Assembly (NCBI GenBank): GCA_021234155.1
Contig: JAJEKV010000036.1
Span: forward strand, 2,720,996-2,784,995
Length of the DNA stretch: 64,000 nucleotides
Reading direction: 5' to 3'
From: Isoetes taiwanensis
Taxonomy: Eukaryota; Streptophyta; Lycopodiopsida; Isoetales; Isoetaceae
Under the pieces are notes generated by a model. The model was not told the origin of the DNA. It ran no database searches and saw only the letters and a program-made list of their open reading frames with translations. A program made the translations under genes and the position numbers. Of the stretch, positions 2,500 through 57,735 are shown one piece after another; position 1 is the first letter of the stretch, and each line of letters starts with the position of its first letter.

Positions 2500-5400
2500 C
2501 TGTAGTTTTGATTACAGTGTGATCTTCTCAATTCAATGAACTAGAAATTTAGAACTTGCCCACCTGAGAAGATGTGCATTACCGAAAAACAAAGACTTAA
2601 ATCTAGACCTGGCCTCGAATACTTGAAATCGATGGATGCTATCTAGATGTGATGGAGAGTGATATAGCCTGCATCTTTGGTAAGTGGTGCACAGGTATCC
2701 TTTTCTTGACATGCTGATCCGCCTGCCCACTTCATGTGCAACTTTTTGGAATGAGACTATCAAGTGTACCAAAAATGTACTTGCATTTTGTTGACAAAGG
2801 TACACATGCATTCCGTCTCTATCATAACAAATTGCTGAAACCCTCCTGGATCACTCAGTTAATTTGGCAGGCCACCAGCTGCAGCGTTTGGAAACCCACA
2901 TCCTAGTCCACACTCAAGACAGCCCAGCACCATTCACAGAATTGGATATAGAAGTTTAGATATCATCACATTCACTGTTTTAAGAAAAAAGTCATCACAT
3001 GCACTGCTATTGTACATCCTTTATATTCCCCATCTTTATTGCTGGCTTGGATTACCCTTTTCACTAATGTCGAATACGGCTTCAGCCTGCTTGCAGCTAT
3101 CCTAATGTTGCTACATATATGCTTCAAATTTAGCATTTACAGCAAATTTAGTACTCAATATGTGGAAGAATCATAGATGATGCAGGGCGCAGAAGACTTT
3201 TTCTTGACCTTCAACTGTAGCAGTGCATCAAAGTTGCCTTTTTGCTAGAGTCTGAAACATTGGGAAATAACATTTTATACCTTCTATGCCCATGTAGCTC
3301 ATGATGTCCAGACCTTTTGGAATTCCAAATTACAGTGAGAATGCTGATGGGCGGTCATGGATGAACCCGTCCAATCCGAGACCACGGGGGTCCCCGGACT
3401 TTCAAACCAAGAAATTATCCACCTTCTGTTGTGGAGAGCTTTAGATCTGAAGGATAATTGGCAGGCCCACTTCAATATAGCTGAGGTGAACATTGAAATG
3501 GCTTTAAGGCTTAATATCTGAGATTTATTGAGGCGGTGGAGATTCCATAACTAGGCTATATAACATCCTTGCATCCGGCATCATACGTTCAGTAATGAGG
3601 CGTTTGTTCTGTGCAAAATATTGAGATTCCAAGCAGTTGGTAATTTCTTTATTCTTTGATAAAAGAGAACCACAATACAAACAGGCAGCTGATGAATACC
3701 TTCAGAGTTCCCATTACATAGTGAAGCAAGTCCAAATAGTACCGCTACCCAAGCAAAATATTCCTTTTGCATTCCTGTTTTGCATCTCAATTTCAAACCC
3801 ATAAGTGTCGACGGCAGCTACTCAGTTTAACACATCAGGTTTTATGCCATCCTGACCATGTACTTAAGCCTTGAGCAAATCTACTTAAAAGGATCGAAAA
3901 ATCTGCTAAGATGCAACGATAGATAGGACCTATTCTTCTTGTTACGTTTCATAATTTACGAAAAGAATCTTTTTCCATTCTCCGCTCCAGATTGCTGGCA
4001 ATTTGATACCTATAATTAAAAACCAGAAGCAAAGGAAGACCCAGATCCAGAATTCCAGAAAGTTGAACGGTTCAAGTACAGTGCAAGACGAGTTCTTGTT
4101 CAAGCAAAAAAATTCTTCTTTGCTAATATTGGGCAGCCAACTAGAGTTAAAGCAGGGAATGTGTAGTATTACTGGCAAATGCACTGGAAGGAATGGTCGA
4201 CATCACCAAACTTACTTGAGCTCGACTTGTCGTCTGGGTTTCTTTTGGGATTTTCTGTTCCATTATGGCGGATCGCTTTCAATACGTGTGGACCCGAGGT
4301 GTAAAATATCAGTGCTGAATCTTGGGCCAGCGCGTTATCAGCGCGGGATATTTTTAGAGGCATGTGAACGGCCCACGAGGAAAATCTTAAAAGGTAAAGG
4401 GCTTTCCACGTTTTTTTTTTTTTCACTTCCGGCATTGGGTTTGCTGGAGCGCAACAGAGTTATTTTAGGTGCCGGAGCCAACTTGAAGCTGAGAGTGTTC
4501 TGGTTGGGTCTTCTTATCTGCTATTTTTTAATTTACTTGAAGTGAATCAATGTTATTGGGCTTGGGCGATTGTGATTTTGCATGCATGAGAAGGACTTGA
4601 AGATAACTACAGAGCAAACAAAGCATAGTTACAACAGGTATCTTCCTTTCACATTTTTATTGCTATTTGTCTTTTGCTATTCTGTCTTTTTTGCATTTGT
4701 TCTTCAGCTTTTCTTTATCAATAAAAAACAGATTTTCCTCTTTCAGCATTATATCATCAATAAAAAACAGAGAGGACCCTTTGACTTCATTATTTTATGC
4801 TATTTTCACTTATATGCTTCTATTCACAAAAGTAGATGGCATTCGTTTCCTATTTTATGCCATGTATTCTTTTTCCTAGCCTTTTTCCCAGCCATTCACC
4901 CCTTGTAAATTACAGACAGAGCCTGTATTTTTATGCCCTTCAATATTATTAATTGTCTTTTGCATGCAGATCCAATTACATGTGAGTCATACAACATGGC
5001 TCCTATCAAGAACACGAAAAGAAGAGGAAAACAAATAAGCTTGTTTACAATGCTTGGATTTTGCAAAAATCTATGTATATAGGTATGAGCTTGCACAAGA
5101 GATTGGTATTCATGGACTGATTTTTTTTGTAATCTGATCCAGGTTGTTTATATTATGAAGTTGTAATGAGATTGAGATCTATGTGTTTTGTCAAGTTTTT
5201 GTGATTAAACTATGTTGCCATTATGAATTCTATAAGAGAAAAAAAATATTTTACATCTTACTGTTCCGATTGATATGTATAGTAGCAGGAACTGGCCGAT
5301 TGAGAATTTGAAAATCCGGTTAGGATGAGTAACAGCAGGAAATTTTCCAATATGGTGGAAAAACTTTGCCCAACACTCTGACCATAGCCAGGATACAGTT

Positions 5401-5688
5401 CGCTAATTCGTCCCTTTGTTTTTGGTAATGTGGCAACGAATTTAATGTATTATAATGTGGCAAATGCTTTTTAAAAAAATTTGCTTGGAGTAAAAACTTT
5501 TTAATAAATTTTTTTTTTTTTTTTTATGGATCATTGATTTTAGGTAACTTATCAAAAGACCACTAAAATATCTAGGGCTCCAAAAAATATTATTATGACA
5601 TGAAGCCTATAATAGAAAAAGGTAGACCATCAATGAGTCGTCATGCCATGGCTGGCGAAAAACAAATTGCCCCCTAAAACCGAGAGGG
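2500..5688. other. Non-coding: LRR gene intron/promoter side
   Basis: Apart from the candidate signal exon I see no coding pattern here. The longer open frames (for example 4003-4545 plus) have no domain, compositional signal or splice context. T- and A-rich tracts are common (for example the T run near 4410-4424). Confidence 0.5.
3688..3802 (-). CDS. Candidate signal-peptide exon of the LRR gene
   Basis: A minus-strand reading frame opens with two possible starts and a hydrophobic core (YFAWVAVLFGLASLC), as expected for a secretory signal peptide. It lies about 1.2 kb upstream of the LRR cap exon. The junction to that exon is unclear: the best donor (GAAG/GTATTC) does not give the phase the cap exon needs, while a weaker GTTTGT donor slightly downstream would. 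The assignment is inferred from position and hydrophobicity only. Confidence 0.3.
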
Positions 5689-6288
5689 TCAACGGGAGGC
5701 TTAAATTACTACTAGTATTTTGGCACGTGGCATTTATCTTCCATCTTATCTCTGTTCTGGCGGAGCTAGGCTTGAATGATTTTCTCCGGTGGACTTCAGC
5801 GGGCTAATGGACAACCCTTTGAATGAACTTGCCCCTGTGTTTTTTTAGTGCCCTTGTCGCTGATCTGTCACTGATCTTGAAGATTTTGAAGCGAAATCTT
5901 TGATCCGTCGCTGATCTTTGATCCGTCGCTGATCTTGAAGATTTTGAAGCGAAATCTTCAGATGCACACATCCTTCGGATCTTGAAGCTTAAATCTTAAA
6001 GCCGGATCTTGAAGTTTAAACATATCTTGAAGCTGAGAAGGAGCCATAGCAAACAAATGCATGCTCGGCCATAGCCGCAGAAGAATGCCATAGCCTATAC
6101 TTTCTGCTCGACCATAGCCTATACTTTCTTCCATAGCCTGCTCGCCATAGCCGCAGAAGAACGCCTGCTCGCCATAGCCGAGAAGAAATAGAGGCAAACC
6201 CTGAGCCATGGCCACTCCACAATAGCGGAGGAACTTTTCCTCGTTTTAAAACACGCCGAATATAGGCGTAATTTAAGCCTCCCGTTGA
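5689..6288. mobile_element. Foldback / MITE-like element with 21-bp terminal inverted repeats
   Basis: The 21 bases at 5689-5709 (TCAACGGGAGGCTTAAATTA plus C) are the exact reverse complement of 6268-6288. The 600-bp span carries no transposase. Its interior is two blocks of short repeats: GATCTTGAAG/GATCCGTCGCTGATC units (about 5860-6020) and CCATAGCC-rich units (about 6040-6200). No target-site duplication is obvious directly outside the repeats, so the true ends could be slightly different. Confidence 0.6.
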
Positions 6289-19690: not shown

Positions 19691-20907
19691 TGTGACGTTC
19701 CAGCACAGTATACGGTCCCAGGACGTATACTGTACTGCCTCGTTACGCGTACACGCCATCTCGATTGATGTGCACGCCGACGTGTAGCTAAGCAAGTAGC
19801 ACCCTAGGGGGCAACTTGCAAGTGTGTGCACATTTATTCATGTGTACACTTTAGCCCACTTAATTAATATAGGCAAGTGGGCCACACCCATTTATATCCC
19901 ACATGTTTAAGGGTTGGTGGAGACCCTAGCCCTAACTTGTAGTCTATATAAGGCAACCTAAATCCTAACTTTCTATTTTCGCCCACAACCTTCTAGAACT
20001 CCATTTTGCTTGCTCCAAGAGCCAATCTTGACTCCCGAAGTCTGTCTGAGCAGCCTAGCTCATCAGCTTCCCTTTCTAGCTCCATCTTCAAGCAGATCTG
20101 CAGCATGGACACATTCAGAGCAGGAGGAGCAAGCCAGGGATCAGGTATTTTGCCAATTCAATAGTCTAATCCGCCTCCCAGACATAGAATAAGTAGGTTT
20201 AGCCTATTGAATTGCCCATAACAGCCATCTAGACCTCTAGATACCAAGCCATAACTAAAGAACCTAACTCTGTGATTTAGATTAAATCTTATTCTTTAGT
20301 TCTTCTATGATATGTATGTGATGATGATCTCTGTGGAATCATTGTATTGGGAAGGGGGGTAGAGGCCTTAAAAGCCTAGTAGTTGATGCTCCTAGCTAGC
20401 CCTCTTTAATGCACTATTAAATTCGGCCTGTGTACAAGAACCACACCTGGTTGTGGGTGGAGGGGCCAGACTGGCTTACAAGGAGGTTCATGTCTTGACT
20501 CATGATCACGTCCCTCTGGTAGTAAAGCCTATCGGGGACTACAGTGCACTAGGCCTAATGCTCTGCCACTGCGTGCAGGCTTTGCATGGGTTCGACACTC
20601 TTGGGGTGGTGTACACCTTCCATGGAGTTCAGTCGAGTACGGGCAGTGGCCCTCAAGTCACCTTGAGTCAGCATGCCAACCTCTGGTGGGAGCAATCCCT
20701 ACCTGCCCCATCGGAACTGGGGAGATGAAATCTAGGAGTAGCCCCTTTGGCTATGCATCCGGCGGGCTACAGTCAGGTCCCAAAACCTTTCAGCCTACTC
20801 TGCAAAGTGTGCACAGGAGGGGTGGATGGAGTGGACAACCCTAAGCCATGTTCTTATGCCAGCCAAATCCATTCGCCATGAATTCTGTCTGCAATGACTT
20901 CAGTCAT
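19691..20907 (+). repeat. Long LTR related to the H3-carrying element, 3'-truncated
   Basis: It starts TGTGACGTTCCAG, interrupts copia-2 gag, and is diverged from but co-linear with the LTR at 49260. Shared landmarks are a tip inverted repeat, CACCCTAGGGGGCAAC, a TATATAAGG box (19945-19953), the mini-exon at 20105-20144, TGTGGGTGG, and CATGAATTCxGTCTGCA near the end. Homology stops at about 20907, about 320 bp short of a full LTR, where LINE sequence begins. Confidence 0.8.
20105..20144 (+). other. LTR mini-exon with splice donor
   Basis: ATG opens a 13-codon frame (MDTFRAGGASQGS) ending at G/GTATTT. The other LTR has the same length and nearly the same peptide at 49644-49683 with G/GTAACT. 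Conservation of length, frame and donor between two diverged LTRs suggests a real coding leader exon. Confidence 0.5.
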
Positions 20908-46700: not shown

Positions 46701-49259
46701 GAAAGCAAGCTAGGGTATACGTGAATCGAAACATTACCAAAAGTACCCATGGATACTCGAAGATGATGGTGTAGTTCAATTTTCGGCATCTTAATGGTAT
46801 TAAAAAAGTACTTTAGGACATTGTCTATTCGCCACTCTTAATCTTAGTACAATTAGTCTTGGATAAGGATGTAATCTAGGTATTTTAAAATACATTTGTG
46901 TACTCCTACAGAAGTATACAGAAAGGTACCTGTTAGATAATTTTTTATGTATACCCTATCATGCTTTCACCCGATTATGGCTATAGTCTTTGAGCAAGAT
47001 TTAACAAGATTTTGTTTGCAAGTTAACCTTCAAGTCTAGATGATTACCTTGTGCCCTTCCCTCTTGACTTCGCTCTAGGCTTGCTAAATCGTGTACACAA
47101 TTATGTTTATACCTTTGTTGTCGCATTGCCAAGAGGGCAATTACATGTTTTAGAAAACAACATGGCAAACTCTATAAATATTTATGCAGTAATTGATGTA
47201 CTTGTTCAGCTTCTGATTTACAACTCCAAGGTTATGACAACATTCTACCATGTGTGAGATCTTTTAATTTTGCCATTTCATGACATTCAATTCCAGTTCT
47301 GTAAAGGATTTGTACTTGCAGGACCTCAATGGCTTATGCCTCTTTCCACATTTATTTGCTTTGGATGCATTAATGTGACCATGAACTTTTCAGTCTTGCA
47401 GCTTTGAATCATTACAAATTTAAGTTCCAAGTATGAACTATGGCAGAGGAATTTGGCAAGCATTCATGATGTCCAATATGGACTCTTGAATGGATTGTGA
47501 ATATATGAGAATATGACAGTTCTTGTTACAATTCTATGAAGCAGATGAGCTCTATTGATCTGGAAGAATTGCAATAATATTATAGATTAGATAAGGGAAT
47601 TCAATCATGTTTGCTCTAATTTTGCAGTATCTGTCATGCTTCAGACATGACAAACTTCAAACGCGCACAAAGGAGAATTCAGGCTATTTTTTGGTGGTTC
47701 AGAATCTCAAATAGTGTTGCTTCATATCCAACTTCCATGTCTCTTAGAATTTATTTGACAAAGGTGTAAAGATAATCGGTCTTCTTACCACGGAATAATT
47801 TAAGGGCTAAACTTAGATATTTGGCAAATTTTTAACATATTTTCAAAAAATATTGGCTAAAGTAAATGGAAAAAATTGAGGAAAAATAATAATTTTTGCT
47901 TGATTTTTTTTTGCGCCTGCACCAACCTTCGATCTCTTTAGTACATAGTGAAATTTTGCATTGTTTAGCTAAACTAAATGAATTTCAGGCTAGTTTAGTT
48001 AACATCAGTCTAGTTTATAAGAAATATATGATTGTAGTAATTTATTTTCTAGCATCTACAGAATAATTTGAGGCCTAGATATAGCTAGCTAGCATTGTTT
48101 TAGAATGTTTCGAGAAAGAAAATGATTAAAGTAAATGGAAACAATTGGAAAAAAAAGTATTGTAATTTTAGCTTAATGTTTTCCATTGACCACATCACAT
48201 AAATTTTTGGCATGAATTTTGGGTTAGTTTAGCTAAACGCTAGAATGTATGAGAGGGAAAATGTGTAGAGTTTAGGTAAACCACAGAAAGTATTGTGATT
48301 AATCTCGGGCAAGTTTAGCTAAAGCCATTATGGCTAATAATAAATATACGATTAGTCCCTGCTTCTTACAAAGCATATTCAAATGTCATAGCTCCTCCTT
48401 CAATCTTTACTCAGCTTCAACATATGTATCAGAGCAAATTTTGGGGAAGAGATGTGAAAATGTATAATCTCCAGATTCATTCATTTTAGCAAATGTGCTT
48501 TCTTTGGATATGTGTGTTTAGTGTATTTTATAGATGCAAGCCAGCAATCATATCATGCTGCAAGTAATCCAAACAAATGAAAAGCACAATGTATCAAACT
48601 TGACTCATCCATATTTCCAGCATGGAGCTTTAAAATTTAATATCATGCCATGTACTGGATGCATCAAGTGCTCTCAACCATATCCAATCTACTATATATA
48701 ACCTATTGTCAAATGAATCACTAGCTAGCAATCACTTTCTGCTTAATAAAGACAATCAGGATTTATGCCTAGCATCATGAAGTTGTCTCAAAAGTATATT
48801 ATTTTATAACAAATTATTATATTTGTGCTCCCTTTTGTTGGCATTCATTTTAAAGTAAAATTATGCTATTTTGTGTTAGGTTTGTTTGACTAACATTTTA
48901 CAATTTTGAAGGTCTACAATTTTGTAATTTGCTTCAAAATTCTTGAGACACGTCCTTTCAATTACTACGTAATGTAACTTCACTATGTTGGAACTCCTCA
49001 ACTGCAACTGCTATTTAGTACGCTTAATTAATGGAGGGACAAGTGGATGTTCGTTCAGCACTAGAAGATTTAATATGGACTAGATGATGGAAGTTCTCAA
49101 AATGAAATGACATAGATGTTTTTCCAACGTCATAGAGCATTAGAGCATACAATGTTTGTTGATGGTTGTTTTACTCTGCTAGAGAAAAATATCACCTAGA
49201 GGGCACAATGCTTATCAGCCCAATTTCATAGGTAGGAGCACAATTGATTTATCTCTCAA
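40727..49259. other. Gene-poor AT-rich stretch
   Basis: No coding gene can be supported. Small frames such as 42117-42362 and 46337-46713 are open but lack motifs. The stretch contains the 43353-43393 hairpin. It also holds diverged repeats containing CTAAAGTAAATGGAAA (near 47860 and 48130). Confidence 0.45.
43353..43393. repeat. Perfect 19-bp hairpin with 3-nt loop
   Basis: TGTCTACAAAGTACATCAA at 43353-43371, a TGG spacer, then its exact reverse complement at 43375-43393. Confidence 0.95.
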
Positions 49260-49475
49260 TGTGACATTCCAGTATAACGTACGATCTGAATACGTATATT
49301 ATACTACCACGTCACACGTACATGTCATCATGACAAGTACTTGAGAGCCGTGAAGGGTTGCACCTAGGGGGCAACCTCGTATGTTGTGCATGTATATTAA
49401 ACATATACAACTAAAACCCCCTTGCCACGTGGCAATACCCCATTTGGTCCCTCTTAACCTAACCCTAAAAGTTCA

Positions 49476-49484
49476 CATATAAGG
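49476..49484 (+). promoter_or_regulatory. Putative LTR TATA box
   Basis: CATATAAGG lies 168 bp upstream of the mini-exon ATG. The related LTR has TATATAAGG at nearly the same distance. Position and conservation suggest the RNA start lies shortly downstream. Confidence 0.55.
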
Positions 49485-49643
49485 AACCAAAGAGGAAACC
49501 ATAAACCTTTCCTCTTTCGCATTTTGGGCTTCCCTAAGCCATTCCGGTTAAGGCAAGCTGCCATTTCGCATTGCTAGACGCCGTTGAGCCGCCTTTGCAC
49601 ATCAGATTGATCAAGAGCAGCAGTCCTCAGCAAGAACGAAGGC

Positions 49644-49683
49644 ATGGACGCATTCCGGGGAGATGGAGCTAGCCAAGGATCAG
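49644..49683 (+). other. LTR mini-exon with splice donor
   Basis: ATG plus 13 codons (MDAFRGDGASQGS) end at G/GTAACT. The related LTR gives MDTFRAGGASQGS with G/GTATTT at the identical offset. Splicing from here past the H3-like ORF to a downstream acceptor would fuse this leader to a Gag-side frame. The candidates are TTTGCATAG/CAGCA near 53133 and TGTATGCAG/CTAGAG at 54191. Confidence 0.5.
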
Positions 49684-50769
49684 GTAACTTGCTATTCTGT
49701 TGTGCAAAGTTGCCTTTTAGCCCGACAATGAGTTAGGATAGCATGTTGGATCAGTCCCATCAGCCTTGTAGATTCTAAGATCAACAGCGGTAACGAAAGA
49801 ACCTAACCTTGTATGTTTAGGTAAGATAGATTAGATCTTATTCAGTATTTCAGTTCTTTGATGTTGATGATGTTCCATTCTATGCTCTCCCTGGTATGTG
49901 GGAAGGGGGTAGAGACCCCAAACCTTCAAGCTTGATGATCCTAGATAACCTCATTAATTCCCAATTAATGCCACCAGGCAACAAGAGCCCACCGTGGTTG
50001 TGGGTGGCGAGGCTAGACCGGTGGAATACGGGGGACTTGTCCCATCACTGATTGATCCCTCTGGTGTGTAAAGCCTACCAGGGATCTTAGTGGGCTAGGC
50101 TTAATGGTTTGCCACTGCGTGTGGGCAAGGCATGAGCTCGACACCTCTTGGGTGATGCGTCACCTTCAATGGTATTCAAGTCGAATACGGGCAGTGGCCC
50201 TCTAGCCACATGTGATGGGCTTCTGAGGTGACTCTCTCCTGCCTCATCGAGACTGGGGAGATGCAACCCAGTAGTAGCCCTCTTGGCTATGCACCCGGCA
50301 GGCTACGGTCCGGTCCCAAGACTTTTCAACCTACTCTGCAAAGTGTGCACGGGAGGGGCGGATGGAGTGGACTACCCAACAGCCACGTTCTTATGCCAGC
50401 CCAATCTAATTGCCATGAATTCGGTCTGCATTGACTTCTAGAGACCCAAGCCGTCAGTCGATTTCCCATGAGTCTGAGCCTTGGGTAGGATTCCCTTTTG
50501 TTGCTATTATTTATGTTGATATTGTTACTCATGTTATGTTATGATGTATTCACCCTTCGAGGTGACTTTATTGATATATTGAGGTCATGTGCTCATGTTT
50601 ATTTGCGCTTTCGCAGCTAGGTCGATCCCGAAGGAAGACAGGGCAAATGACCCATCCACTCTTGGGATTGGCGTCAGGTGGATGGCCCTTGCCAGTTTGG
50701 CTATCAGGGGGATGAACTCCGCCTTCTGATACGATAGTAGCATTGTAGAAGAAGTAGGGGACATCACAG

Positions 50770-50781
50770 TGGTATCAAAGC
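50770..50781 (+). other. Primer binding site (initiator Met-tRNA type, one mismatch)
   Basis: TGGTATCAAAGC begins 3 nt after the LTR. It differs by one base from the usual TGGTATCAGAGC. Confidence 0.85.
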
Positions 50782-50989
50782 ATGATCTTGGTAGACCAAG
50801 TTCGGGCACTGACCATTCCCTGTTAGATCTAACAGTAGACTTCCAGTCTGGGGAATAGCAACCCAAGCATGAACCTCAAAAATTGGAAAAAAAAAATTTC
50901 CAATCCTTAGAGCAGTTAAGTAGAGTAATGCTAGGTTAGTAAAAAATTTAGCAAAACCTTGAAAAATTATGGCCATTAGGGAGTGACCT

Positions 50990-51052
50990 CTCACAGAGTG
51001 CGCCCTGGGCAATTCCGAAAATTTTGGAAGTGCTTCTCGTGCACTGTGTGAG
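50990..51052 (+). repeat. Hairpin repeat copy 1 (upstream of H3 ORF)
   Basis: CTCACAGAGTGCGCC...GTGCACTGTGTGAG. The ends pair to form a stem, and the loop contains ATTCCGAAAATTTTGGAAGT, itself nearly palindromic. Confidence 0.85.
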
Positions 51053-51203
51053 TGGTGGACCCATGTTGACCTAGATAGATGCATAATTAGTGCAATCTGA
51101 TAGTGCAGGGTAGCTTAATCCTTGAATTTGAGCTAGAATTGTATGTTATAACACTAAGAAACTATTTATAAAAAAGAAAGTTTGAGTAAAAAAGGGGTGA
51201 CCC

Positions 51204-51266
51204 CTCACAGAGTGCGCCCTGGGCAATTCCGAAAATTTTGGAAGTGCTTCTCGCGCACTGTGTGAG
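51204..51266 (+). repeat. Hairpin repeat copy 2 (upstream of H3 ORF)
   Basis: Almost identical to copy 1 (63 nt). The stem CTCACAGAGTGCGC pairs with GCGCACTGTGTGAG with one mismatch. Confidence 0.85.
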
Positions 51267-51491
51267 TGGTGGACACTTTTTGCCTAAACAAACCTAATAT
51301 TTTGATCCTACCAACACTAATGCCTTGCAAAATGGTACGACATGAAATTGCGGGTCCAAACCCTAAAATCCCCAGACCTATAAATAGACCATTAGGGTTC
51401 CTCATTTTCATTTTCCTTCAAATTTACTTTGTTCTCCGCCCAACAAAGGCAATTTTAGGCGCTTCTAAAGGCGATCACACTATTTCAAAAC

Positions 51492-52634
51492 ATGGCCCGC
51501 ACCAAACAAACTGCTCGGATGGTAGTACCCGACGATTATATCAGTGCCTAAGTCCTCGCTGCTCAACAGAAGGCCAGAGAGACTCAGGATCGAGCCAGAC
51601 AAGAGACCCTGACGCGAACCCTGGCACCCAAGAGGAGGATCAGGAGCACCAGGAGGAAGAGGGACACGGCCAGAATACTGAAGAGCAGGAAAACCCTGAG
51701 AGTCAGGGTGATGGAGGACAAAACGAGGAGGACGAGGACGAAGATCTACCAAAGGAGCTGGTGCAGAAGCTAAAGAAGATGGCGAAGAAGAAGAAGGCAG
51801 CAAAGAGAAAGAGAATCAAAGAGAAGCTGGAGCGGAAGAGGTTGAGGGAGGAGTGCCAGAAGCAGAAAGAAGACAAAGGGAAGGATCCGGAGATGCCTAA
51901 GAAACCCCGACGCAAGACGAAGTCAACACCGGCTAAGGGGGTCACCATAACGGAGCGGGAGCCCGACAGGCCACCATCCTCAGACACTGAGTCAGACGAG
52001 GATGAGACAAACACCCAACAGAAGGCTCGGGACCTTCGAATGTAGATGCCGAGGGGAAGGAATCGGCAGCAACAGCGCCAGCATACCCCAAATGGCCGAA
52101 GCCGACAGCAGATCCTAAGAAGGGCAGGCTGGCACGAGAGTTTTATGTACTCAAGCATGAGCAAGAGTATAGGAAGAAGCTGAAGGAGTACAACCACTAC
52201 ATGAGAATATACGAGGAGTGTACTCCAAATATTACGAAGAACACAAGGTAACATATGTGGAGGGAGGAAGGCCATCAAAGAAGAACACACTGAAGCCACC
52301 CCCGGAGAGACCCACACCCTCAAAGAAGCCAATGAAGAGAAAGGCAGACTCCTATTTTGCGCGAGCTGCTCGGGAGATCCGTCATTTTCAGAGGAGCTAC
52401 GGGCTGTTGATTCCACGAGCTGCCTTCGCGAGATTGACCCGCGAGATCCTGCAACAATTCGACAGCACCAGAAGAGTAACAAACAACATGTTACTCGCAT
52501 TGCAGGAGGCAGCGGAGCAAAGACTAGTCCAACATTTTGAAGACTCTCTAGCATGTGCCCTCCATGCAAAGGGAGTAACTTGTATGCCTAGGGACATGAA
52601 ATTAGCTAGGTTTATTAAAAAGGAAGACTGCTGA
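51492..52634 (+). pseudogene. Histone H3-like protein ORF of the retrotransposon (disrupted copy)
   Basis: The ATG at 51492 starts MARTKQTARMVVPDDYISA, whose first nine residues equal the histone H3 N-terminus; a TAA follows at 51549. The reading continues in another frame through a Glu/Asp-rich then Lys/Arg-rich, probably coiled-coil linker (EEDEDEDLPKELVQKLKKMA, about 51640-52030). A third frame carries PKWPKPTADPKKGRLAREF and HEQEYRKKLKEY (about 52045-52215). The last part is an intact 138-codon frame, 52218-52631. Its residues 48-138 (52359-52631) form a full histone fold: AREIRHFQRS and LLIPRAAFARLTREIL, then ALQEAAEQRLVQHFED, ALHAKGV, MPRDMKLAR. By hand alignment to canonical H3 from residue 45 to the end, there are no gaps and about 46 of 91 identities. 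Equivalents of C110, H113, D123, R69, R72 and R83 are kept; R116 (G) and R129 (F) are changed. The ancestral protein would be about 380 aa, almost three times H3. One stop and three frame changes disable this copy. Confidence 0.88.
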
Positions 52635-52850: not shown

Positions 52851-52954
52851 TGATCGGCCACTGATCTTTGCCAAGGCTTGGCCAAATGTAGAAAGTAAGG
52901 ATACAATCCGCCCTAACTCGACGAGATAGATAGGACCCAAACAGGACTCCACCC

Positions 52955-53017
52955 CTCACAGAGTGCGCCAAGAGCCATTCCGAAATTTTTGAAAGTGCCT
53001 CTCGCACACTGTGTGAG
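52955..53017 (+). repeat. Hairpin repeat copy 4 (downstream of H3 ORF)
   Basis: CTCACAGAGTGCGCC...CGCACACTGTGTGAG, 63 nt, same orientation as copies 1 and 2. Confidence 0.85.
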
Positions 53018-53133: not shown

Positions 53134-53992
53134 AGCACCTCCGACTGATAGATATCCCCAAACCCTAGGGGTTATATGATAGACAAACTCCTACACCTCC
53201 TACGTCAGCAGCCAGACCTCGACGACTTCGTCGACCGGGAGACGCAAGACTTCCCCATCAGCATAAGGGAAGCCCGGACGTACACTGGCCAGTCATCAAC
53301 GGACATAGAAGCCTACACTGGCATTAGGCAGATGATGGCACAACAGGAGTTACCCACAGAGGAGGAGTTCATAGCGATCCAAGAGCGGATGGGAATCAGA
53401 GGGAAAACAACGAGTGCGCTCCTACCCAGCACCTTGTCGGCAGCAGCACCAGTCGAACAGGATAGAGGCAGTATCAACTTAACATCTTCTAAGTCCATGT
53501 TCGGCTAACTCTGGGGGGAGATGATAGCAAGCATTCGGTGGATCTAATACTCGGGGAACGTGGGGCTGTAATCAGAACCGGAGAGGAGGCGGGGAAGGCA
53601 GGGCACGACAAAGCCCTCAGGTTCTATTTGCCATTGCTCATTGATGGAAGGATAGCGGTCATACACCGTCAATTCAGCCCATGTGGAGAAGAAGGGGTTT
53701 TTATGCTTATTGCCCTCTCAGGCTTCGGAAGACATGCTCGGATGGCCCCAAACATCGATCATATCATCCTTGTCAAGAGGACAATAGCGTTAAGCATCTT
53801 CGACCGCGGGCAAATTACCCTTATAGGCAAAGACATCGGTTGGCATCACCGCAGCCACCCACATCGAGAGAAGAGTTGAAGACTTGGTGACCGCACTCCA
53901 AGGAGGCACGACCACCAACATCCTCAGGAACTTGGGGCGAACAGTCGGCACAGTCCAAGTGAAGAAATTTTTGGAGGACAACCCAGCTTATA
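53134..53992 (+). pseudogene. Unassigned ORF between H3-like ORF and gag
   Basis: Segments in shifting frames read LLHLLRQQPDLDDFVDRETQ then EARTYTGQSSTDIEAYTGIR (53176-53505). In the next frame come ALRFYLPLLIDGRIAVI and HIILVKRTIAL (53538-53876). The last part reads VTALQGGTTTNILRNLGRTV then KKFLEDNPAYRRFQE (to 53989). Consistent amino-acid style over about 270 residues suggests one former protein, perhaps the N-terminal half of Gag, but I recognise no domain. The stretch 53993-54190 ends TGTATGCAG and could be an intron before gag. Confidence 0.5.
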
Positions 53993-54190: not shown

Positions 54191-55565
54191 CAGCTAGAGT
54201 ACCCAGGAATGTGGAACAAGATAGACAACTTCCGGAAGAACAAACACCTGCAAGACAATTTTAGCCAAGGAACCTATTCCAGGAGTTCGAGGCACCAACC
54301 CCAGAAGAAGAAATATCGCAGATAAGGTCGGACATCCACTTTTAAATAAGAGCCTTTGTCGGGGAGGCGGGGCAGCAATGGGACCGCACTGTAATGTCCA
54401 ACTACCAAACACCGGCCTACAGATAAGTCAAAGGCAAAGAAGAGAAGCCGAGAAGGAGATCACCCAAGACGGATTCTCCTCCAACTCTAGTTCGAATCGA
54501 CCGGACCCGAAGAGCAGGAGAACGATCCATAAGGACCGGAGGGTCCCAACCGCGGATAGGGATAGAATGGAAGTCGAACTATCGTAAGAAAGTTGACTCC
54601 CAAGACCGAGCAATGTGTGGAAAGCTGAAGTTAGAGCAGTTCTCGTGAGATAACTGTGTCTGGAAATGGAAGCCGAGGCATGGTTGGATGAAATGAGGGA
54701 GTATGAGAATGCTTATAGCATGAAGAATAAGGACAAGGGTGGTAGCAACAGCCAACCCTCAAGGGAGCAAAGCTATGATTTGGTGAAAAGGCATATGCCA
54801 AAGCCCATGGGTTGGCGCAGATAGCTGCAGATTCAAGAAGTTCGCCAAAGCATTTGCCGCCATTATGTACCAAGAGAACACAAGTGCCATATGATGAAAC
54901 AGTTCTATAGGTTGGAGCGTGGCAATAAGACCCCGTATATAATCGAGGAGTTCATGAGGCTGAGGCTCTATGTGCCGAAATTGAGTGAAAGACATGCAGT
55001 AGAGGGGTACATTGAAGGCTTGAATGAAGAGATCAAGAAGCTGGTGAGAGCAATAAACCCCAAGACAGTGTCAGAAGCAGAGTCCAAGGCAGTGAGCTTA
55101 CAAGGAATAGGACCTCAAGCAAATGGACCGAGGCAGCGGTACTATCAGGACAAGGGAAAGACTACAGGAAGCTACAGCCCAAGAGCAACAAGCCCAGCAG
55201 CTACCAGACCTCAGTACAACACAAATTACGGGAAGCAAAGCAACACAAATTTTGGCAAGAAGGACAAGAAGCAAGTCAGCTTCAAGGAGCAAGGAGGTGG
55301 TTCAAACTACTCTAAACCAGTGAAACAGTTCTTACAGTCCATCCTCAAAGAGAAGAAGCAGGAATGTATTGAAAAGCAGTTGTGCTTCAGGTGCTTCCAG
55401 CCAGGGCATCGGACATATAACTGCCCATTGGTGATGAATGCGGCGTTAACAGAGCTAGGAGGATGGGAGACACCCACGGACATCGACGAAGAAGATGCTC
55501 CCGACTACATCCAGGGTGAGTGCCACATCTTTGCCGCTATTGACTCCGAGAATGCTGAGAGTTAG
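54191..55565 (+). pseudogene. Gag (capsid and CCHC zinc knuckle) of the H3-carrying element
   Basis: Degenerate up to about 54880, then open for 224 codons (54891-55562). It reads FYRLERGNKTPYIIEEFMRL, then LSERHAVEGYIEGLNEEIKK and VRAINPKTVSEAESKAVSL, the pattern of retrotransposon capsid domains. A long polar Gln/Asn/Lys-rich linker follows. The knuckle CFRCFQPGHRTYNC (55383-55424) has exact C-x2-C-x4-H-x4-C spacing and binds RNA in such proteins. Earlier stops show that it is not functional as it stands. Confidence 0.85.
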
Positions 55566-55870
55566 TACCAAGTCATTTTGATGACTGGGAAGGCCCAAGC
55601 CAAATCCTTCATAGTGTTGATGACGGGGAGTACCACGCTTTTGCTCGCTAAGGATGGTACGGATGTTGAAGCCGAAGGTTTCAGGGCCGGTTGTGTTGGC
55701 TAGTGGGGCAATCCGACACACGGCAGGGAAGAGGATCAACTTCAACATAGACTTGCCAGGTATCAATGTTGGAATGGGAGCAGAAGTGATGAACATCGAC
55801 AAGTACGACTTGATCATAGGCGTGGAATACCTTGGACGGCTGGAGCCCTGATTGATTGTGGGATCCATCA
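55566..55870 (+). pseudogene. Retropepsin-like protease remnant; element broken off here
   Basis: KAQAKSFIVLM followed by TGSTTLLLA near 55590-55650 sits where an Asp-Thr/Ser-Gly-Ser active site is expected; a single inserted base shifts the catalytic Asp out of frame. KYDLIIGVEYLGRLEP (near 55801) matches the usual D-IIG-(M/V)-(D/E)-(W/Y)-L motif after it. Recognisable retroelement sequence ends at about 55870. Confidence 0.65.
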
Positions 55871-55876
55871 GGGTGC

Positions 55877-57230
55877 ATCAAACATTTAGCATATTATATG
55901 CTTATGAGGTTTGGGATTAGGGGAGCGAAGGAGTTGCATGATGTCTTAGATTGTGATGTGTACTTAGACACTGATATAGGTGGTGAAATCATTAAGTATG
56001 GAGAGAGAATAAGTAAGAACCATCAGCCGACTGTTATCAAGTTCTGAGAGGCACTTCCAAAAACCTGTTTGGACGCATGAGTCTGATTTTATCTTCACCT
56101 ACAAGCAATATGTCTGCCACTTACCTGCAAAGGAGCAGAATTCGAAGGTGAGGGCATTATTTCTTCAGCCAATTCTGTGTCCTAGAGAAAATGTAAGTGA
56201 TTTCTTATGTAAGTTTTTTTTTATTTATGATAATATTTTAATTGCATGTCTTTCTTTACATCTGGTATGTTGTTACACCTGCTAGAACGAACAAGATATC
56301 CAAATGTTGAAAGTCATGCCCACCGTCATTGGTCCTGAGACACAAATCTGTAATATGAGCAGTCGCATATTTTTGGTTTCTCGTTTTTCAAATGCAAATG
56401 TTCCGGTGGAAGTCGGAATGAGCATTACGAGCCATAGGAATTCCAATTCTTATGACAAGTAATTATTTTAATTGGGTTTTCTATTTTTCTTGTTTGTTAT
56501 TAGGGTTCTTATTAGATTTTTCTTGCAAGTATGATCATAGCCTTGATTTGAAGGTAGATGCATGTATGGATCTGGTCTCAAAGCCAGTTAATGCTGATGG
56601 CGCAACAAGATCTTTCACAAATGTGCTTTCTGGTAATTGTACTGGACTTGGACTTTACATTTGTTTAAGTCTTTAAATTATAGTATTTATTCTGTCAAAT
56701 CGATTCTAGTATTCTGTTGTAAATGCTATTGTTATAATGTTTAGATTTTTTTATTCTTTATTCTGTCATAATGAATTCTGCTATTTGCAGATGAGGTTTC
56801 CAAAAGTCAGCTTAATGGCAGTGGTTCTAGAGTTGTACTTGGGGAGTTATAGAAGAATGTAGCAGTACAGGGATCGTCTTCAAGAGTTTTGCGAGATGCA
56901 GATATAGTGCAACAAGAAAATACCTTATCTGTACTTGAGGCTCCAAAGTTAGATGGTCACTCAGGTTAGCAGCTTTCTATCGTTGATAATTCTGGTCAGA
57001 TCATCGGTGGCGATGGTGCTAAAGTCTATTGTGAGCTGGTCAAGGATAAATATGACGAGGATTTTTATAAGCAGCTTAGTATGGATTGTCCGGAGGGTGC
57101 AAGGGCACTTGGAAAGTACCACTCACAGGTTATGAGTAATTCTGGGACGTTCACAGGTTGTACATTCAATTTAGGTATCGATGCAAATAAGCTTTTACAA
57201 GTTATTTCTGCAGTCGTCAAGGAGAAGTAG
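55877..57230 (+). pseudogene. Crypton/DUF3504-like tyrosine recombinase gene, multi-exon, degenerate
   Basis: Exon 1 (to 56192, donor GTAAGT) gives MRFGIRGAKELHDV, the first catalytic Arg region, then IIKYGERISKNHQ. A shifted frame gives HESDFIFTYKQYVCHLPAKE and VRALFLQPILCPREN. Exon 2 (56286-56458) gives ICNMSSRIFLVSRF then ANVPVEVGMSITSHRNSNSY. This resembles the NHS-x-R ... GH-x-S ... Y catalytic blocks of Crypton-type recombinases, but His is replaced by Met in the first block and Gly by Ser in the second. Exons 56530-56632 and 56791-57230 end GTFTGCTFNLGIDANKLLQV and a stop. The N-terminal DNA-binding half is missing, and internal stops occur (56045, 56848). Identification is from motif order only. 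Confidence 0.55.
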
Positions 57231-57735
57231 TGATGGATTGTATTCTGGATTTCTGAGATGTAATTCAAGTTGTGGATTTTGGAGAACTTATGGATTTGTG
57301 GATTCAACGAAATTCTGGACATATAGCAGTTTTGAACTTGTGGATATAGAAGACTTAAAAACTTTTGGTATTGGCATGAGTTTCAGTTGAACTCATTCTT
57401 GCAATCTGTTTTGCAGTTGAACTTCTGGATTTGGAACCCTGTGTATTTCAGTTTAATGAACATTGTGTTATGAATTGTAAGAAGATTTAATATGTAATAG
57501 TTTAGTGTAAATGTCTGTAATTTAATTTATACTTTGTTTGTTTAAGCTGTGTGGATAATAGTGTGTATAATAGTGTATGTGCAAACTTTTGACAGAATAT
57601 TGCAGTAATCCCAAGCTATGAAGTGAATACAAAGATCTCAAACTAAAACAATCAGGGAGAAAACCCTGGAATTGGAAGGAAGGGAAAAGTTCGTAACAAG
57701 AAATTCAAAAGTGTGTTTTGTTTTTCAAGAATCTT

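What the first reader, a model, noticed from the sequence alone, without database searches (positions are those of the whole stretch)
51492..52634. LTR retrotransposon with an extra ORF encoding a histone H3-like protein
Seen: between a 1.5-kb LTR plus Met primer site and a CCHC gag lies a roughly 380-codon former ORF. Its 3' third aligns without gaps to the whole H3 histone fold (about 46 of 91 identities by hand) and its 5' end is the H3 tail. Established: some plant elements (Ogre/Tat type) carry an extra ORF before gag, and others target chromatin with integrase chromodomains. Inference: this element captured a host histone gene and may deposit its own histone, shape its chromatin, or steer integration. 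I know of no described family like this.
Basis: partly seen in the sequence, partly recalled or inferred. Interest (0 to 1): 0.97.

Follow-up and report, generated by a model that had tools for sequence, protein, structure and literature searches.

The report
Retrotransposon carrying its own histone H3
A large family of virus-like jumping genes in this genome carries its own, evolutionarily maintained version of histone H3, a protein that packages DNA, which suggests that the elements supply their own histone to influence how the host cell packages or silences DNA.

Summary
The ORF at 51492-52634 starts with the exact H3 tail MARTKQTAR and ends in a gapless H3 fold (46/88 identities to host H3; PDB H3 E=1.7e-21). 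The fold search of this genome gave 9,514 first-look candidates; all 150 scored matched. The best-studied complete element has paired LTRs, a 5-bp TSD, Met PBS, H3 ORF, an orphan ORF, gag-PR-RT-RH-INT and a chromodomain: a chromovirus, not Ogre/Tat. I distinguish six families. A, E and F keep H3 residues 1-8, a long linker and the fold; B-D have an orphan N-domain and an 84-87% canonical H3 core. Selection is purifying: omega 0.03 (B-D core), 0.05 (tail tip), 0.1 (A fold); synonymous divergence from host H3 is near saturation, so capture is old. A TATA box at a fixed distance precedes the ORF in 42/55 tail-type copies. Position 9 in family A is K, I, M or V, recalling H3K9M inhibitors. Protein function, expression and other species are untested.

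The parts
49258..50768 (+). 5' LTR of the window element
   Evidence: blastn to both LTRs of complete element L021/L022, 68.5-69.8% identity
50770..50781 (+). primer binding site TGGTATCAAAGC (tRNA-Met type; type recalled)
   Evidence: sequence; same place in L021 as TGGTATCAGAGC
50988..51052 (+). palindromic ~65-nt hairpin repeat 1, upstream of the H3 TATA box
   Evidence: repeat family; consensus fold
51202..51266 (+). palindromic hairpin repeat 2
51379..51387 (+). internal TATA box TATAAATAG, 113 nt before the H3 ATG
   Evidence: 42 of 55 distinct tail-type copies have TATAAA 109-113 nt upstream
51492..51518 (+). MARTKQTAR, exact H3 N-terminal tail; the next codon (position 9, 51519-51521) is ATG = Met
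51492..52634 (+). decayed H3 ORF (family A): tail + charged linker + H3 fold, in four frame-shifted pieces with a stop at codon 20
   Evidence: tblastn of intact relative L012
52368..52631 (+). H3 histone fold
   Evidence: PF00125 E=1.8e-21; PDB H3 E=1.7e-21; 46/88 identities to host H3
52953..53017 (+). palindromic hairpin repeat 3, between the H3 ORF and ORF-B
53167..53755 (+). 3' remnant of the second extra ORF (ORF-B, orphan); its 5' half is missing here
   Evidence: tblastn of L027 ORF-B; no Pfam hit above cut-off
54609..55871 (+). gag (Ty3 capsid, CCHC) and protease remnant

Best explanation
This is an old, very successful lineage of chromodomain Ty3/gypsy LTR retrotransposons that captured a host histone H3 gene and kept it as an accessory gene between the 5' LTR and gag-pol. 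SHOWN: the ORF encodes an H3-type protein; it is present in hundreds of scored copies; it is under strong purifying selection; in the tail-type families it has a TATA box at a fixed distance inside the element. INFERRED: it is transcribed separately from the LTR transcript. The protein pairs with host H4, enters (H3-H4)2-type particles or nucleosomes, and marks chromatin carrying it (the element's own cDNA, new insertions or host chromatin) so that it is harder to silence. Families B-D would do so by depositing a near-canonical H3 core whose tail has been replaced. The value below is for the whole statement up to nucleosome entry.
For: Copies: 150/150 scored of 9,514 candidates. Of 150 scored PF00125 hits, 135 rank below 15 host-like H3s (bits 144-155); all 17 of those 135 that I fetched are 367-486 aa open frames with an H3 core. 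Place: three elements with both LTRs have the H3 ORF after the 5' LTR and before gag (L021, L053) or, where gag was not scanned, before RT (L051). Selection: omega 0.03 B-D core (2dlnL vs 1 = 611), 0.05 tail codons 2-9, 0.1 A fold, against 0.25-0.3 in linkers. Host versus B-D cores (12 pairs: 2 host genes, 6 element copies): pS 0.77-0.98, pN 0.09-0.135. C110, H113, A114, R116, D123, L126 and I130 (H3-H3' interface, positions recalled) are unchanged in 25/25 intact copies. Internal TATA: 42/55 tail-type copies; a TATA also precedes ORF-B by 118-119 nt in the 3 of 4 family-A copies where its start was found. Tail tip conserved across families with different linkers. Plausibility: unintegrated retroviral DNA is loaded with H3 nucleosomes and silenced with H3K9me3 (PMC8621569, passages).
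Against: No expression, protein or binding data. Family A has lost canonical DNA-contact residues (R63 is P in 11/12, F84 is V in 12/12) and R129 (F or Y in 12/12), so it may not form ordinary nucleosomes. K9 is retained in 24/54 family-A tails and in 6/6 E/F tails, so loss of K9 is not the general point of the gene. Tail conservation is confined to the tip: codons 2-17 together give omega 0.25 (0.15-0.4). Families B-D have no TATAAA within 140 nt (0/17), and 13 of 55 tail-type copies lack it. The single-sequence fold of the window protein was poor (pLDDT 59, pTM 0.23). Copies for selection tests were chosen for long open frames, and the 8-codon tail estimate has more parameters than sites. 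One genome only.
Confidence: 0.58

Rival explanations
1. Histone-tail decoy: the protein does not need to enter nucleosomes. The exact tip ARTKQTAR on a long arm titrates or traps H3-tail enzymes and readers. In the I/M/V-9 part of family A it acts like H3K9M, trapping an H3K9 methyltransferase and blocking silencing in trans.
For: Residues 1-8 evolve at omega 0.05 against 0.3 for the linker; K4 54/54, T6 54/54, T3 and Q5 53/54 in recovered tails (recovery required 6 of 9 matches); tip kept across A, E and F although linkers differ. Position 9 in A is only K 24, I 14, M 10, V 6 of 54, and Ile uses three codons (ATT 6, ATC 4, ATA 4). H3K9M dominantly blocks H3K9me and traps Clr4 in a SAM-dependent manner (PMC5030085, abstract and passages).
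Against: Only 5 changes at position 9 on the tree and 2 between K and non-K, so the restriction to I/M/V rests on few events. K9 is kept in 24 of 54 A tails and all 6 sampled E/F tails. Families B-D have no tip. The fold would not need omega 0.03-0.1 for a pure tail decoy. PMC5030085 has no mention of Ile-9 (searched terms).
Confidence: 0.2
2. Integration targeting: the element H3 (alone or through H4) tethers the pre-integration complex to chromatin, or seeds nucleosomes that the element's own integrase chromodomain recognises.
For: A chromodomain is present on the integrase (PF00385 E=2.9e-10, one element) and the H3 tip is kept in tail-type families.
Against: The chromodomain has Ile and Leu where HP1 has cage residues Y24 and Y48 (by-eye alignment to recalled HP1), i.e. 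the type II pattern whose partner is not identified (PMC3350952, PMC6317226, passages). Families B-D have no tip. Insertion sites were not mapped.
Confidence: 0.12
3. Structural or packaging role: the H3 protein condenses element cDNA or RNA inside virus-like particles, as a nucleocapsid helper.
For: Lysine/arginine-rich linkers and a DNA-binding fold; a gag-proximal location.
Against: Internal TATA boxes and retention of the H3-H3' interface and, in B-D, canonical core residues point to pairing with histones rather than free packaging.
Confidence: 0.08
4. Passenger: a transduplicated H3 fragment with no role for the element, like the RIP-inactivated hAT copies in fungi.
For: Precedent of H3 capture by hAT elements (PMC6710886, PMC3538342); the window copy itself is dead; 44 of 150 scored family-A hits have in-frame stops in the matched stretch (hand count).
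Against: omega 0.1 (A fold) and 0.03 (B-D core) with 2dlnL 292 and 611 against 1, near-saturated synonymous divergence, persistence through six families.
Confidence: 0.02

Closest known systems
hAT DNA transposons carrying histone H3 in Dothideomycete fungi (PMC3538342, PMC6710886)
   Same: A mobile element carries and amplifies a histone H3 ORF.
   Different: DNA transposon; in Pseudocercospora and relatives all copies but the original gene are RIP-inactivated, in Pyrenophora the copies are described as recent with identical copies. Here it is an LTR retrotransposon, the capture is old, several families exist, the H3 is fused to new parts and is under strong purifying selection.
Phalaenopsis Ty3/gypsy elements with an extra m6A-demethylase-like 2-ODD ORF (PMC9289625)
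   Same: Plant Ty3/gypsy elements that acquired a host regulatory domain in an extra ORF.
   Different: RNA demethylase-like domain, not a histone; described in title and abstract as recent and in Phalaenopsis orchids.
Extra ORFs (eORF-5'F) of plant LTR retrotransposons, Ogre/Tat included (PMC6317226)
   Same: Extra ORF of more than 250 codons on the 5' side of gag-pol.
   Different: [quoted passage not shown] here the host is a chromodomain element and the H3 domain is shared across families.
Single viral H3s and other viral histones (PMC9145170)
   Same: Selfish genomes encoding host-derived H3, some with extended tails.
   Different: DNA viruses, not a retroelement; passages read mention no retroelement histone.
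H3K9M dominant inhibitors (PMC5030085)
   Same: H3 tail context with Met at position 9 occurs in part of family A.
   Different: Introduced mutations in host H3; inhibition by the element protein untested; residues after position 9 differ from H3.

Membership tests
Ty3/gypsy chromovirus | gag, PR, RT, RNase H, integrase in that order | tested here: met
   Pfam hits Retrotrans_gag/Ty3_capsid, RVP_2, RVT_1, RT_RNaseH, Integrase_H2C2/rve in order along L021 then L022; one element
Ty3/gypsy chromovirus | chromodomain at the C-terminus of integrase | tested here: met
   PF00385 E=2.9e-10 at residues 691-740 of 765, checked in one element
Ty3/gypsy chromovirus | LTR pair, target site duplication, tRNA-Met PBS | tested here: met
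   L021/L022: LTRs 94.2% identical, TSD ACATC on both sides, PBS TGGTATCAGAGC; L051/L052: LTRs 89.6%, TSD AACTC on both sides, PBS changed; L053/L054: LTRs 95.3%, GTGACC on both sides, PBS TGGTATCAGAGC. Own LTR pair seen in 3 of the 7 elements for which I fetched 16-18 kb
Ty3/gypsy chromovirus | RT tree position among named chromovirus clades | not tested
   no reference RT set fetched
Ogre/Tat | second (archaeal-type) RNase H and no chromodomain | tested here: not met
   chromodomain present and RNase H hits over one region only in L022:334-2628; criteria from passages of PMC6317226
Histone H3 | H3 histone fold by profile and alignment | tested here: met
   PF00125 up to E=1.1e-43, 1.8e-21 for the window; PDB H3
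Histone H3 | H3-H3' four-helix-bundle residues | tested here: met
   C110, H113, A114, R116, D123, L126, I130 unchanged in 25/25 intact copies, R129 changed in 12/12 A copies; the decayed window copy has G at R116
Histone H3 | incorporation into nucleosomes with H4 | not testable with these tools
   no binding assay; monomer fold of the window protein was low confidence
CENH3 | longer loop 1 than H3 (recalled) | tested here: not met
   alignment to host H3 is gapless through loop 1 in the rows shown for families A-D
hAT-type H3 transduplication | terminal inverted repeats and hAT transposase | tested here: not met
   LTRs, RT and integrase instead
H3K9M-like inhibitor | Met or Ile at position 9 in an H3 tail context | tested here: inconclusive
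   24 of 54 recovered family-A tails have I or M, 24 K, 6 V; inhibition not testable

The most novel reading that the evidence does not exclude
A retrotransposon encodes its own silencing-proof histone system: near-canonical H3 cores without a normal tail (families B-D) that dress element DNA in chromatin lacking the usual silencing lysines, and in family A a natural H3K9M/H3K9I-type decoy that traps the host H3K9 methyltransferase in trans, a naturally evolved analogue of a K-to-M histone mutant.
Probability: 0.2. Interest if true: 0.97.

Novelty: new variant of a known kind. Interest (0 to 1): 0.9.

Why it matters
Plants silence transposons largely through marks on histone H3. A retroelement lineage that makes its own selected H3 would be a direct counter-move at the level of the nucleosome. 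It gives a natural set of H3 variants (tail swapped, tail kept, K9 replaced) that shows which parts of H3 a selfish element needs, and it makes testable whether transposons can change chromatin by supplying a histone. It also warns that many 'H3' hits in such a genome are transposon genes.

Tried and rejected
AlphaFold2 of the window's 138-aa ORF without an alignment gave pLDDT 59 and pTM 0.23, so no structure search was made. CENH3 origin: rejected, loop 1 is not longer. Ogre/Tat: rejected. Recent capture or gene conversion with host H3: rejected for B-D, synonymous sites are near saturation. Chromodomain reading the element's own K9me: not favoured (type II pattern by eye, one element). ORF-B and the B-D N-domain: ORF-B has no Pfam hit above cut-off, no NCBIfam hit, no significant PDB match (best E=0.35) and no relative found in viral contigs; the N-domain has no Pfam hit above cut-off in three proteins and no NCBIfam hit in the one scanned; it was not compared with the PDB. 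ORF-B of family A and B show no similarity by BLASTP; B and D do, 49%. IQ-TREE gave no omega value that I could read, so a likelihood grid over omega and kappa was used; one search failed on a thread setting, seen. Literature searches aimed at this system: (and 64 for viral histones). None of the papers listed is, by title, abstract start or the passages I read, about a histone gene of an LTR retrotransposon; the listings were capped (for example 20 of 1,749, 15 of 21, 10 of 288) and cover open-licence PMC papers only. Host identity: not tested by sequence; one search was a paper search on a guess and settled nothing.

Rows dropped: of 20 family-A copies fetched in full, 12 went into the selection test (L003 near-duplicate of L002; L011, L014, L015, L017-L020 because no intact start was found in the longest open frame); L010, kept, has a short frame-shifted stretch in its linker. 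Of 17 B-D copies, 13 were used (L033, L036, L043, L045 left out). Of 60 family-A tails sought, 6 were not recovered (L020, L059, L060, L066, L082, L086).

Full report
CHECK OF THE OBSERVATION. The window contains a 5' LTR (49258-50768), a Met-type PBS at 50770-50781, MARTKQTAR from 51492, an H3 fold at 52368-52631, and a CCHC gag from about 54.6 kb. The fold is not chance: PF00125 E=1.8e-21, best PDB match an H3.3 with E=1.7e-21, and 46 of 88 gapless identities to the H3 encoded by the same genome. Against an intact relative the window ORF lies in four shifted pieces with a stop at codon 20; ORF-B has lost its 5' half, and family-A RT and RH-INT queries find no match in the window. The window copy is dead.

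IT IS A GENE OF A LARGE ELEMENT FAMILY. Searching the window's genome (1.658 Gb, 1,110 contigs) with the 138-aa ORF gave 9,514 first-look candidates; 150 were scored and all 150 matched at E<=1.6e-66, 75-99% identity. By my hand count 44 of the 150 have in-frame stops in the matched stretch and 106 none. A search with the fold of another copy (L007) gave 8,169 candidates, 150 of 150 scored significant, many of them the same places. A PF00125 search gave 8,705 candidates; of 150 scored, the top 15 look like host H3 (164-165 bits; I read 3 of them, L046-L048, all canonical H3) and the other 135 score 144-155 bits with open frames up to 494 aa. I fetched 17 of those 135; all 17 are long ORFs ending in a near-canonical H3 core.

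ANATOMY OF COMPLETE ELEMENTS. I fetched 16-18 kb around seven copies. Three show their own LTR pair: L021/L022 (94.2% identical), L051/L052 (89.6%) and L053/L054 (95.3%); the other four do not within the fetched span. L021/L022 has TGTGACGTTC...GACGTCACA ends, a 5-bp TSD ACATC on both sides and a PBS TGGTATCAGAGC; L051/L052 has AACTC on both sides of the LTR-bounded stretch, and L053/L054 GTGACC. The order in L021/L022 is LTR, H3 ORF, ORF-B, gag, PR, RT, RH, INT and chromodomain, LTR. In L053 the H3 ORF also lies between 5' LTR and a Pfam-supported gag; in L051 it lies between 5' LTR and RT, gag not having been scanned. L021/L022 is therefore a chromodomain Ty3/gypsy element. ORF-B has no recognisable relative in the libraries tried.

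SIX FAMILIES (my labels). A: the window's family; tail MARTKQTAR, a long charged linker, divergent H3 fold (mean 48% to host H3 at 44-135, 12 copies). B, C, D: about 200 aa orphan N-domain, charged or Q-rich linker, then an H3 core 84%, 87% and 86% identical to host H3 at 44-135 (7, 4, 2 copies). E (L103, L104, L107, L109, L110) and F (L108 alone): MARTKQTARK, other linkers, intermediate folds. E and F came from regions upstream of RT hits. Of the top 25 RT hits to L021's RT, 13 have a listed H3 hit upstream on the same strand, 12 at about 5 kb and one at 8.2 kb (hand matching). Of the other 12 I fetched the upstream 2.6 kb for 8, and did the same for 8 lower-ranked RT hits chosen for long RT frames: 4 of 8 and 7 of 8 encode an H3 ORF there, together 11 of 16; L095, L096, L100, L101 and L106 do not in that stretch. 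So of 33 RT hits, 24 have the H3 ORF, 5 showed none in the stretch read and 4 were not looked at: most, not all.

SELECTION. Codon-model likelihood grids (12 of 20 fetched A copies; 13 of 17 B-D copies) give omega 0.05 for A tail codons 2-9 (0.02-0.15), 0.3 for the A linker, 0.1 for the pre-fold module and the A fold, and 0.15, 0.25 and 0.03 for the B-D N-domain, linker and H3 core; 2dlnL against omega=1 is 35, 233, 209, 292, 704, 157 and 611. Tail codons 2-17 together give 0.25 (0.15-0.4), so the strong constraint is on the tip. The 8-codon estimate has fewer sites than parameters (program warning). Copies were chosen for long frames, which favours low omega, but hardly to this degree. Host versus B-D cores (12 pairs from 2 host genes and 6 copies): pS 0.77-0.98 and pN 0.09-0.135; B, C and D against each other (3 pairs): pS 0.74-0.87, pN 0.07-0.09; five within-family pairs: omega 0.007-0.165. 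The capture is therefore old and the core is held by selection. Seven H3-H3' interface residues (positions recalled) are unchanged in 25 of 25 copies; an eighth, R129, is F or Y in A. DNA-contact residues are canonical or conservatively changed in B-D (one copy has C at R49) and partly changed in A (R63 to P in 11/12, F84 to V in 12/12).

THE TAIL. Of 60 A copies sampled (20 in full and 40 tails, mostly with frames of 300 aa or more), 54 gave a recognisable tail (at least 6 of 9 matches, which itself favours conservation): K4 54/54, T6 54/54, T3 and Q5 53/54, A7 51/54, R8 48/54, R2 46/54. Position 9, which was not part of the criterion, is K 24, I 14, M 10, V 6. On a tree of flanking DNA this needs five changes, two between K and non-K, so the I/M/V state is largely inherited; Ile is nevertheless kept through three codons. 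E and F have K9 in 6 of 6. The window copy has Met (ATG, 51519-51521). H3K9M traps the fission-yeast H3K9 methyltransferase and blocks H3K9 methylation dominantly (PMC5030085, abstract and passages); that Ile can act alike is recalled from other K-to-I work, and is not in the passages I searched. In B-D the tail is gone apart from what may be a TGGK/TAGK-P remnant.

PROMOTERS AND PALINDROMES. TATAAA lies 109-113 nt before the H3 ATG in 42 of 55 distinct tail-type copies with at least 140 nt upstream, window included, and in 0 of 17 B-D copies. A first count gave 49 of 62 and 0 of 20, but it included seven duplicate records (four tail-type, three B-D) and, by its start motif, the three host H3 genes; its shuffled control had TATAAA in 116 of 1,620. 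ORF-B has a TATA 118-119 nt before its ATG in the three of four A copies where its start was found; one B and one C copy have TATAA at other distances, and the L021 LTR has three TATAA. Palindromic repeats of about 65 nt precede both: in five elements examined (window, L021, L023, L025, L027) two copies stand before the H3 TATA and one to three between the H3 ORF and ORF-B. RNAalifold predicts 15 pairs; 3 have changes on both sides in 5, 5 and 8 of 20 sequences but are broken in 5, 5 and 4, and the covariation term is only -0.2. I read these as duplicated promoter modules or conserved palindromes; RNA or DNA action cannot be told apart.

HOW IT PROBABLY WORKS. Shown: an H3 gene, in an element, under selection, with promoter-like signals. 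Inferred: a separate mRNA; pairing with H4; presence in nucleosome-like particles; benefit through weaker silencing. Unintegrated retroviral DNA is rapidly loaded with H3 nucleosomes and marked H3K9me3 (PMC8621569, passages), so an element-made H3 that lacks or replaces the tail would have an obvious use. Against a simple 'no K9' model, E, F and nearly half of sampled A keep K9; there the conserved tip on a long arm may engage H3-tail enzymes or readers. The integrase chromodomain lacks two cage aromatics by eye, so a simple loop in which it reads its own K9me is not favoured.

KNOWN OR NEW. Known kinds: extra ORFs in plant LTR elements (PMC6317226, passages), capture of an RNA-demethylase-like domain by orchid Ty3/gypsy (PMC9289625, abstract parts and passages), H3 carried by fungal hAT elements (PMC6710886, abstract and Discussion part 1; PMC3538342, passages), and viral histones (PMC9145170, passages). 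Chromodomain types: PMC3350952 (passages). I found no report of a selected histone gene in an LTR retrotransposon in the capped listings of searches of open-licence PMC papers. I therefore call it a new variant of a known kind.

LIMITS.

Noticed in passing
window 50988-51052, 51202-51266, 52953-53017; L021, L023, L025, L027: Palindromic ~65-nt hairpin repeats with conserved outer arms and an inner stem whose sequence differs between elements while pairing is partly kept; in family A they stand in front of both internal TATA boxes.
   Followed up: partly
L021:5774-6463, L027:2566-3930 (-), L049:5558-6562, L053:5696-6871: A second extra ORF (ORF-B) between the H3 ORF and gag, with its own TATA 118-119 nt upstream in three family-A copies; no Pfam, NCBIfam, significant PDB or viral relative found; A-type and B-type versions are not alike by BLASTP.
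   Followed up: partly
L049:4055-4654, L051:4136-4756, L053:4196-4795: Orphan ~200-aa N-terminal domain fused to the H3 core in families B-D, 33-37% identical to the first sequence aligned, omega about 0.15.
   Followed up: partly
L027:9055-10000 (oriented) versus L028:2630-3571 (oriented), and L028:1-2635 versus 3572-6214: Long direct duplications (97%) inside one copy, covering the gag-protease region among others; may be a nested or tandem rearrangement.
   Followed up: no
window 20103-20901: LTR-like fragment, about 73% identical to LTRs of family-A elements, far from the element at 49-56 kb.
   Followed up: no
window 55908-57289: Matches in inverted orientation (85%) DNA that lies upstream of the element in L025; probably another repeat next to both copies.
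   Followed up: no
L002 and L003 (contig C907, about 583 kb apart): Two nearly identical family-A H3 ORFs, suggesting a recent insertion or a segmental duplication.
   Followed up: no
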